Below, in pieces: positions 41,401 to 44,400 of a stretch of 64,000 nt of DNA (position 1 is its first letter; each line of letters starts with the position of its first letter). This DNA comes from Henricia sp. BOLD:AAB3569 (taxonomy: Eukaryota > Echinodermata > Asteroidea > Spinulosida > Echinasteridae). The notes beneath the pieces were generated by a model that made no database searches, was not told the origin of the DNA, and saw only the letters and a list, made by a program, of their open reading frames with translations. The DNA is taken from the NCBI GenBank assembly GCA_037783545.1, contig JBBELK010000368.1:992001-1056000 (forward strand), given 5' to 3'. The position numbers and the translations under genes were made by a program.

Positions 41401-44400
41401 TGAAACAGCACCATTGACAGTCACGCTGATGTCATAGAAGACAGTTCCGTATTCCACTTCATTGCTTGAACTCCACGTAATGTTGAAGTTATGCCACGGT
41501 CCGACAATCTGAATTGACTCGGCTGGTATCGCGGATGGGACAACGTTGGGAACCGTTGAAAAACCATCTAGGGTAGAAATTGCAATGTTATTTTTTAAGC
41601 CATAAAAAGTACCACAAAAAAAATTAAAAATCAGATTTTATTATTTCTTGAGCTTCACGAACATTAAAATATACAGAATTTGCAACGATCCAAATTTTAT
41701 TCAACCATTTGGAGACCGTTTCAAATTGTCTATATTTTCTGTTTTAAAGAGTATTTTTCAAGACCTCCTCCATCCCCCGAAATACTGGATGGGGTTTACA
41801 TAATTACCTGGTAGGGGCTGAAGCGTGCTCTGTATTATGTCAATGGCAGTAGCACCCTGTACTGGATTGGGTTTACATAATTACCTGGTAGGGGCTGAAG
41901 TGTGCTCTTTATTATGTCATTGGAAGTAGCACCCTGTACTGGATGGGGTTTACATAATTACCTGGTAGGGGCTGAAGTGTGCTCTGTATTATTTCAATGG
42001 CAGTAGCACCCTGTACTGGATTGGGTTTACATAATTACCTGGTAGGGGCTGAAGTGTGCTCTTTATTATGTCATTGGAAGTAGCACCCTGTACTGGATGG
42101 GGTTTACATAATTACCTGGTAGGGGCTGAAGTGTGCTCTGTATTATGTCAATGGCAGTAGCACCCTGTACTGGATTGGGTTTACATAATTACCTGGTAGG
42201 GGCTGAAGTGTGCTCTGTATTATGTCAATGGCAGTAGCACCCTGTACTGGATTGGGTTTACATAATTACCTGGTAGGGGCTGAAGTGTGCTCTGTATTAT
42301 GTCATTGGTAGTAGCACCCTGTACTGGATGGGGTTTACATAATTACCTGGTAGGGGCTGAAGTGTGCTCTGTATTATTTCAATGGCAGTAGCACCCTGTA
42401 CTGGATGGGGTTTACATAATTACCTGGTAGGGGCTGAAGTGTGCTCTGTATTATTTCAATGGCAGTAGCACCCTGTACTGGATGGGGTTTACAAAATTAC
42501 CTGGTAGGGGCTGAAGTGTGCTCTGTATTATGTCAATGGCAGTAGCACCCTGTACTGGATGGAGTTTACAAAATTACCTGGTAGGGGCTGAAGTGTGCTC
42601 TGTATTATGTCAAGGGCAGTAGCACCCTGTACTGGATGGAGTTTACAAAATTACCTGGTAGGGGCTGAAGTGTGCTCTGTATTATGTCAATGGCAGTAGC
42701 ACCCTGTACTGGATGGAGTTTACAAAATTACCTGGTAGGGGCTGAAGTGTGCTCTGTATTATGTCATTGGCAGTAACACCCTGTACTGGATGGAGTTTAG
42801 CAATGCTACTCCTCTCCACATTGCCAACAATAATTTCATCTTGTTCGTCGATCCAGAAAAGCTTCTGACTGTAAAAACTCATCGCCACCCTCCTATTTTT
42901 GGAGAAAAAAATGTGACATTAAAAATTAGGCAACAACTCATTTGCAGACTGTAAAAATTAAAATAAATGTACCACGGGGTTTCGATCCCTGACTATTCAT
43001 GATGCATGTGTCCTTAGGTAAAAAACTCTCTCCAACTAGGGGCCAATTTCATGGCACTGCTCAGCACAAAAACAATTTGCTTAGCACAGAATTTCTTTGC
43101 TTTGTAAAATGGGTTTCCAGTAAAAATTGTATGTCAAATTGTGTTCGCGAGAAACATTAGCAGAATATTAGTAAATACACATCACATACGTTTTTGGCTG
43201 GCAACCCATTTTTGCAATATAAAGCAAAGAAATGTTGTGCTAAGGGGTTGTGCTAAGGGGTCAGGCCCGTAACCAGGGGGTGGGATCTGGTGGATCGGAC
43301 TATCCCCCCCGCGGAACAGGGAGTTCCGCTCTACAAAATAAAAATTCAATAATTCGAATAGTTCAATTTTTCGTCGCACAATATAGCCTGTTGTTAATAT
43401 TGTATTATGTAATTGTTGTATATCACACAGTGATCATATCTGAAAAGGGGTCATCTACTTATCCATGCATTCTTCGTTATGTATGCAATGTTATGTATGG
43501 CCGGCATTTTACTGTTTCAAAACTTGTGCCTGATGGCACTATTCGATCCCCCCCCCCCCCCTCCCCCCCCCCCCGCAAAACTCGCTGGTTACGGGCCTGG
43601 GGGTCGTCCAAAGTTGTCAAAATTGTCACAGGTCTACAGAGCATAGAAAGGTTGGGAGGAGAGTCCAGGGCTGCGTACGACTTTAAATGCACTGGTACTG
43701 ACAAAAACATGTTGATAAGTAATATTTCAGGGAGAGGGAGAGGGAGAGTTGAGGTCTTGAAAAATACTACGTTCTGTAGAACCGTGAAAATTTTGACAAC
43801 TTTGCACGGCTCAGCAGTGCCATGAAATTGGCCCCAGGAGTGAATGGGTACCTTTTTGAAATTTACATTTCAAAAATTTCAAGGGCTTGTCATGCTTCAT
43901 GTGTTCAAGTTCTTTAAATGCATCCTTGATGGAAGTATAATTCCTGAAAAGCTGATTGTGATGCCATTAAAGGAGCTTGTTTAGATTTCTTCAGAAAATG
44001 GATTTTGTTCTAACCTAACAATAATATAAAATACCTCCCTGAAATACTATCCATGGGAAGAAAACAGGAAATTTGCAATCTCCAATTTGGATGTGGAAGC
44101 AAAAAGTTTAGTGTATTATCACTGCACTGCTTTATGGAACTAATAAATTAGTTTACAAAACATTTTTTTTTGACGATATCTTTGAAAATATACGGATTGA
44201 GAGCGTGAAATTTCAGAATGGTAACGAGAAAAATATGACACATGATATGGGTTCAACAATTTCAACACCCATGGAGAAAATGGGGCTAAAAAATGTGATC
44301 TGGACACGCTCCTTTTAAGTGTGGTACATGTACACTGTATGTCCAAAATGTCTGCTACATTTTGACGATATTTGACTGTATACTAGTTTCGAATGTTTTT

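What the first reader, a model, noticed from the sequence alone, without database searches (positions are those of the whole stretch)
41784..42800. A 5' splice site and exon end repeated 13 times in exact 77-bp tandem
Seen directly: a unit of ~68 nt from the end of ROS1 exon 16 plus 9 nt of intron is reiterated with an invariant 77-bp period, so the pre-mRNA carries 13 near-identical CTACCAG-GTAATT donors in a row. The copies next to the exon resemble it most. Some distal units alternate, hinting at a 154-bp higher-order step. 77 is not a multiple of 3, and reading through hits a stop in the second unit, so use of a distal donor would break the receptor between propeller 2 and FnIII 4. Inference: the array could be a decoy-donor or splice-buffering structure, an RNA polymerase/U1 sink, or a copy-number-variable switch for truncated extracellular ROS1. 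It may equally be a neutral minisatellite born by exon-edge duplication.
Basis: partly seen in the sequence, partly recalled or inferred. Interest (0 to 1): 0.85.

Follow-up and report, generated by a model that had tools for sequence, protein, structure and literature searches.

The report
Splice-donor minisatellite in echinoderm ROS1
A piece of DNA covering the end of one exon and the start of the next intron of the receptor gene ROS1 has been copied head to tail thirteen times in what looks like a sea-star genome; it is most likely a tolerated "mirage" minisatellite of a kind known from lancelets, and several other genes of the same genome carry one too.

Summary
On the minus strand, 13 identical CTACCAG|GTAATT donors lie exactly 77 bp apart (+42731 to 41807), copying the last 68 nt of a ROS1 exon plus 9 nt of intron.
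The array is not alone in its genome. Five further arrays copy the 3' edge and donor of exons with a database match (SMARCA2/4, IFT81, cation-efflux, DEAD-box helicase; weakly a tetraspanin), four more follow open frames only, and one copies an acceptor. Mitochondrial code and gene order point to an echinoderm, probably a sea star. Such arrays are described in amphioxus as "mirages", where RT-PCR suggested regular splicing; literature searches turned up no echinoderm case.
I found no sign of function: donor motifs show no consistent excess in tandem arrays, unit invariance is not significant, no RNA fold masks the copies, and unit lengths ignore frame. Best reading: a neutral minisatellite, with the first donor normally used (inferred; no RNA data). 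A bolder reading, a self-correcting recursive-splicing ladder (each copy reads CAG|GT), is not excluded but weak.

The parts
42732..42892 (-). ROS1 exon upstream of the array (161 nt; ...QPLP, phase 1). Its last 68 nt are the exonic part of unit 1
   Evidence: aligns with ROS1 chains; acceptor AAAAATAG|GAGG, donor CCAG|GTAATT
41783..42799 (-). 77-bp tandem array, 13.2 copies, one donor CTACCAG|GTAATT per full copy; donor G at 42731, 42654, 42577, 42500, 42423, 42346, 42269, 42192, 42115, 42038, 41961, 41884, 41807
41783..41798 (-). 16-nt partial copy that ends the array
41568..42731 (-). Host intron, 1164 nt, of which 949 nt (82%) is array
   Evidence: length and sites; share computed
41386..41567 (-). 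Next ROS1 exon (acceptor CTACCCTAG|ATGG; joins as [13 protein letters not shown])
42653..42657 (-). Example (unit 2) of the CAG|GT that could in principle act as acceptor and donor at once; the block -12 to +6 around it is identical in all 13 units
19021..19305 (-). Kinase exon that identifies the gene as ROS1

Best explanation
It is a 'mirage'-type minisatellite: a short stretch across the 3' edge of a ROS1 exon and the start of its intron was duplicated, then grew by unequal exchange or slippage, one and two units at a time, into 13 copies (the sequence pattern is shown; the process is inferred). It persists because the first copy still gives a complete exon and donor, so the spliceosome pairs the first donor with the next exon in most transcripts and the 12 further donors leave with the intron (inferred). 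Where a distal donor is used, the product carries a stop in unit 2 and should be degraded by nonsense-mediated decay (stop shown, decay inferred). The array itself is probably neutral or mildly costly. It is one of a set of such arrays in a genome with many tandem repeats.
For: Copies drift from the exon with distance and share variants in neighbouring and two-unit steps, as in unequal exchange. Other exon-edge donor arrays of the same genome: SMARCA2/4 exon, 7 donors at 89/119 bp; IFT81, 3 at 83 bp; cation-efflux exon, 6 exact-motif donors in 78-bp steps with one gap of 237; DEAD-box helicase exon, at least 17 units of 95 bp; plus a weak tetraspanin match with irregular spacing and four cases by open frame only. 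One acceptor-edge array, 72 bp. Of ten unit lengths seen in the regular donor-edge arrays (77, 83, 91, 87, 66, 78, 95, 89, 119, 80) three are multiples of 3. Four donor patterns gave 389 matches in all, the same patterns read backwards 366. [quoted passage not shown]
Against: No RNA data for this species, so use of the first donor is not shown. All 13 donors are identical from -3 to +6 and score in the top 0.6% of GTs in the gene, and the predicted fold does not hide the extra ones, so a purely inert role is not guaranteed. The stretch -12 to +6 has no variant in any of 13 copies, near significance (P = 0.057). Two of the four donor patterns do exceed their controls (299 against 207, 40 against 24); the other two fall below. 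The base rate of tandem arrays in this genome was not measured.
Confidence: 0.8

Rival explanations
1. Recursive or self-correcting splicing ladder. Each unit ends in CAG|GT, so its end could act as acceptor and donor. A step from donor k to the CAG of unit k+n would remove whole units and rebuild the same donor; after use of a distal donor, re-splicing from donor 1 to the CAG at the junction would restore the normal mRNA. The next unit's donor 77 nt on gives each such point the cryptic 'RS-exon' described for fly ratchet points.
For: CAG|GTAATT in 13 of 13 units. In the five units scored (1, 2, 5, 10, 13) the CAG has a generic acceptor score of 7.9-8.0, 97th percentile of AGs, inside the range 4.8-12.0 of nine real ROS1 acceptors (matrix recalled). 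Branch-point-like TTGAC upstream in 6 of 13 units, TGAC in 10 of 13. RS-exon architecture as described in PMC8605326 (passages). Tandem AGGT duplications can make working introns (PMC4974935 passages).
Against: With a matrix trained on the nine local acceptors the score is 2.4 (82nd percentile; 1.1 in unit 13), and 2.4 is below eight of nine real ones. Three other AGs (at -22, -20, -10) lie between the branch-point-like site and the CAG, and an AG at -49 scores better than the CAG by the local matrix (93rd-97th percentile). TTGAC is absent from 7 of 13 units. In the nine donor-edge arrays scored (ROS1 included) the acceptor percentiles run from 64 to 97, three of them near 65; five ordinary ROS1 exon ends run from 23 to 91, so there is no clear difference. 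77 nt is a very short intron. The host intron is only 1164 nt, whereas fly ratchet points lie mostly in long introns.
Confidence: 0.08
2. Decoy-donor or splice-buffering array, or copy-number switch for truncated ROS1: distal donors compete for U1 and a regulated share of transcripts ends in unit 2, giving a truncated extracellular product.
For: Thirteen identical strong donors. [quoted passage not shown]
Against: Distal donors give the same stop whichever is used (donors 2, 3, 5, 13 computed), so length is a poor switch. No consistent excess of donor motifs in arrays. Amphioxus mirages appear to splice normally by RT-PCR.
Confidence: 0.07
3. Assembly artefact: the true genome has one or a few copies.
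For: The assembly holds a probable tandem artefact elsewhere: COX1 three times at 16,221-base steps in contig C955.
Against: Copies differ by an ordered set of variants and the array has sharp ends. Similar arrays with other units are found elsewhere in the genome.
Confidence: 0.05

Closest known systems
'Mirage' minisatellites of amphioxus (Adh3, TnC, globins BflGb6 and BflGb9; PGBD5 repeats likened to them)
   Same: Tandem copies across an exon-intron boundary, AG/GT in many units, either 5' or 3' boundary, several genes, varied unit lengths (passages of PMC3087553 and PMC3902484)
   Different: Host here is an echinoderm, probably a sea star; 13 copies in ROS1 and 52 donors in another array, against 6 and 3 units in the two BflGb6 haplotypes; no splicing or polymorphism data here
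[quoted passage not shown]
   Same: A minisatellite that supplies several splice donors
   Different: Known here only by title from a citation; paper not held. From recall its unit is 12 bp and several donors are used
Drosophila ratchet points / recursive splicing
   Same: AG|GT juxtaposed, with a second donor downstream
   Different: Weak acceptor context, short intron, tandem origin, no RNA evidence
Intron gain by tandem duplication of AGGT segments (Rogers model; ATP2A1; fission yeast 24-bp arrays) and human tandem repeats at exon-intron boundaries
   Same: Tandem duplication carrying AG|GT at a gene's exon edge (passages of PMC4974935, and PMC2812944)
   Different: Here an existing exon-intron boundary was copied; no new intron is shown

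Membership tests
Mirage minisatellite | Head-to-tail repeats whose unit spans an exon-intron boundary | tested here: met
   68 exon + 9 intron nt per unit, 13.2 copies
Mirage minisatellite | Units retain the splice signal (many, not all) | tested here: met
   CAG|GTAATT in 13 of 13 full units
Mirage minisatellite | Tandem turnover: neighbouring copies homogenised, boundary copies distinct | tested here: met
   lag-1 P = 0.0498, lag-2 P = 0.0085, drift from the exon
Mirage minisatellite | Regular splicing undisturbed | not testable with these tools
   No RNA for this species
Mirage minisatellite | Length polymorphism or somatic instability | not testable with these tools
   One assembly; only one place found by the array query
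Recursive-splicing ratchet point | Juxtaposed acceptor and donor AG|GT | tested here: met
   (sequence only)
Recursive-splicing ratchet point | Competent acceptor (polypyrimidine tract, branch point, no intervening AG) | tested here: inconclusive
   97th percentile with a generic matrix, 76th-82nd with a local one; three intervening AGs; TTGAC in 6 of 13 units
Recursive-splicing ratchet point | Lies in a long intron (usual, not strict) | tested here: not met
   1164 nt
Recursive-splicing ratchet point | Splicing intermediates in RNA | not testable with these tools
   No RNA
AGGT tandem-duplication intron gain | New intron removed between copies | not testable with these tools
   No RNA; no relative without the array available

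The most novel reading that the evidence does not exclude
Exon-edge donor arrays recur in this probable sea-star genome as self-healing ladders: because each copy ends in CAG|GT, any distal donor choice can be undone by a second splice, so the genome can carry long donor arrays in essential genes without harm, and such arrays are a standing source of recursive splice sites and new introns.
Probability: 0.08. Interest if true: 0.8.

Novelty: new member of a known kind. Interest (0 to 1): 0.45.

Why it matters
The name 'mirage' and the cases I could read come from lancelets. Finding the same structure at ROS1 and at exon edges of several conserved genes in a probable sea star suggests it is a wider feature of deuterostome genomes rich in tandem repeats. 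It offers natural experiments on how the spliceosome chooses among identical 5' splice sites, and a starting point for watching intron gain by tandem duplication.

Tried and rejected
Purifying selection on the donor within units: 10 of 77 columns vary; none in -3..+6 (P = 0.27), none in -12..+6 (P = 0.057), one in -20..+6 (P = 0.084). Not significant, so not used as evidence.

RNA structure masking the decoys: 194 of 200 shuffles of a 3-unit stretch fold at least as well (z = +1.74). Rejected.

Donor-driven array birth: four donor patterns gave 299, 18, 40 and 32 matches, the backward controls 207, 35, 24 and 100; one acceptor pattern gave 16 against 18. No consistent excess. Counts are dominated by a few large arrays, and the patterns overlap in part.

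Retrocopies as natural cDNA: a 161-base query holding copies of the exon end found only this locus (only best candidates are scored), so no processed copy was found to read. I did not search for retrocopies of the other genes.

Rfam (three tRNA hits, at 12.9, 25.0 and 56.1 kb) and NCBIfam (two hits far below cut-off) gave nothing useful. For the IFT81 exon Pfam gave only two sub-threshold coiled-coil families; the PDB match is what names it. Papers asked for but not held. The amphioxus Adh3 paper was therefore seen only through PMC3087553 and PMC3902484. Two listed papers touching sea stars or exon-intron boundaries were opened by passages and were unrelated (PMC4063459; PMC5405514). PMC8469720 passages were seen and not used.

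Arrays listed but not opened: most of those, and those outside the 11 read; the list showed only part of its 299 matches.

A random sample for the base rate of tandem arrays was planned (34 regions drawn) but only one 10-kb region was obtained; it held no array with a unit over 17 bp. The base rate is thus not measured.

Full report
Check of the observation. The array lies on the minus strand. CTACCAGGTAATT occurs 13 times with 12 of 12 spacings of exactly 77; Tandem Repeats Finder gives 41783-42799, 13.2 copies, 96% matches, no indels. The unit is 68 nt of exon end plus 9 nt of intron start. Difference from the exonic copy grows with distance (Spearman 0.84, P = 6e-4), and a two-unit step is visible (lag-2 permutation P = 0.0085). 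Ten of 77 columns vary.

The gene. A kinase exon at 19021-19305(-) matches ROS1 chains best. The two exons beside the array, joined, match five distinct chains at 59.7 to 51.5 bits, four named ROS and the best named only 'tyrosine-protein kinase receptor'. Six one-frame passes (three minus-strand frames over two 15-kb stretches, 20-50 kb) place further ROS1 exons in order; three of the six gave nothing. The host intron runs from 42731 to 41568, 1164 nt, phase 1, joining [13 protein letters not shown].

Consequences for splicing. Each donor, CAG|GTAATT, scores 8.8, 99.4th percentile of GTs in the gene, second of the nine ROS1 donors read here (matrix recalled). Donors 2, 3, 5 and 13 (the four computed) give a stop at the same codon in unit 2. 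The AG at the end of the unit (five units scored) lies at the 97th percentile as an acceptor with a generic matrix but at the 76th-82nd with one trained on nine local acceptors; another AG in the unit, at -49, lies at the 86th-97th by either. In a 3-unit stretch of RNA no fold beyond chance is seen (194 of 200 shuffles fold at least as well).

Not alone in its genome. A genome pattern search for three CAGGTAA at 62-92 bp spacing gave 299 matches, of which the output lists part. I read the flanks of 11 distinct arrays from that list, chosen by eye and not at random. In 6 of 11 the first donor closes an open frame that, by eye, follows an acceptor-like site and looks coding: a SNF2 exon matching SMARCA2/SMARCA4 at 83-86 bits (Pfam SNF2-rel_dom), an IFT81 exon (E 1.8e-7), a weak tetraspanin match (E 0.038, below the family cut-off) and three without a family match (L039, L040, L043). 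In 5 of 11 I judged that no coding exon ends there (in L046 and L016 a frame is open but did not look coding). From further searches came a cation-efflux exon (E 1.4e-5, just under the family cut-off; SLC30A9-like by recall), a DEAD-box helicase exon with at least 17 units of 95 bp (E 1.1e-6; ASCC3-like by recall), one more open frame without a match (L054) and one array of acceptors, 72 bp (L055). With ROS1 that makes ten donor-edge arrays: five with reasonable family support, one weak, four by open frame only.

The host. The mitochondrial COX1 of the same assembly has AAA at places where Asn and AGR at places where Ser is expected, and ND1, ND2 and the tRNA block before COX1 run as an inversion of the sea-urchin order (the expected residues and the urchin and sea-star orders are recalled). 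This points to Echinodermata with good confidence and to Asteroidea with fair confidence. The mitochondrial contig is 16,221 bp.

What it is. The amphioxus literature describes 'mirages': minisatellite-like tandem duplications of exon-intron boundaries at Adh3, globin and other genes, with AG/GT in many units, length and somatic instability, and RT-PCR suggesting no interference with regular splicing (passages of PMC3087553; passage of PMC3902484). Human tandem repeats at exon-intron boundaries are also in print (PMC2812944 passages). The ROS1 array meets the testable features. Searches for an echinoderm case and for mirages or minisatellites with recursive splicing listed none that I recognised; two listed candidates opened by passages were unrelated, the rest were seen as listings, and the library lacks most subscription journals.

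Function or not. Evidence for function is thin: donor patterns show no consistent excess in arrays (389 against 366 over four searches; two above and two below their controls), the donor block is not significantly more constant than the rest of the unit, and three of ten unit lengths are multiples of 3. I therefore hold that the array is a tolerated minisatellite and that the first donor is used. The step from sequence to splicing is inferred throughout.

The bold reading. Because every copy ends in CAG|GT, each is formally a ratchet point with an RS-exon of 77 nt, like those described in fly (PMC8605326 passages), and a wrong distal choice could be repaired by a second splice. Acceptor quality is mediocre and uneven across the nine arrays scored (64th to 97th percentile), and the branch-point-like TTGAC is in 6 of 13 units, so I give this 8%.

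Noticed in passing
L040 (G000:C348:27500-36500): An array with 52 CAGGTAA donors, mostly 87 bp apart, follows an open frame ending ...NAKMDILECNYIRQ; much longer than the ROS1 array.
   Followed up: partly
L055 (G000:C328:676000-677600): A 72-bp array repeats an acceptor, TTTTTCAG|GACAAGACACTGCAGCATG, in front of a short exon (DKTLQHVLGAAFKDQTVLTVA): an acceptor-edge counterpart.
   Followed up: partly
window 42724-42732 (-): Read through, the intron start codes GNF after LP, the same residues as in ROS1 of the solved structures (LPGNF), while the spliced form gives LPDGF. Possibly chance, since a GTAAT donor after G forces G-N.
   Followed up: no
window 32388-32720, 48351-48424 (+), 27191-27268 (-): An 84-bp repeat, four tandem copies at 32.4 kb, recurs singly at 48.4 kb just downstream of a ROS1 exon (same strand) and at 27.2 kb (other strand): a dispersed repeat that can go tandem.
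   Followed up: partly
G000:C955: COX1 occurs three times at 16,221-base steps, the length of the mitochondrial contig: a head-to-tail concatemer, probably an assembly artefact.
   Followed up: no
window 6555-7541 (+): A tubulin gene exon on the opposite strand to ROS1 (Pfam Tubulin and Tubulin_C).
   Followed up: no
L009, L010, L013, L027-L032; also L016 and L033: Related 67-bp arrays (CAGGTAAACCTCACGGG...) on several contigs, and two arrays sharing CCTCATGAATATT: dispersed families of tandem repeats.
   Followed up: no
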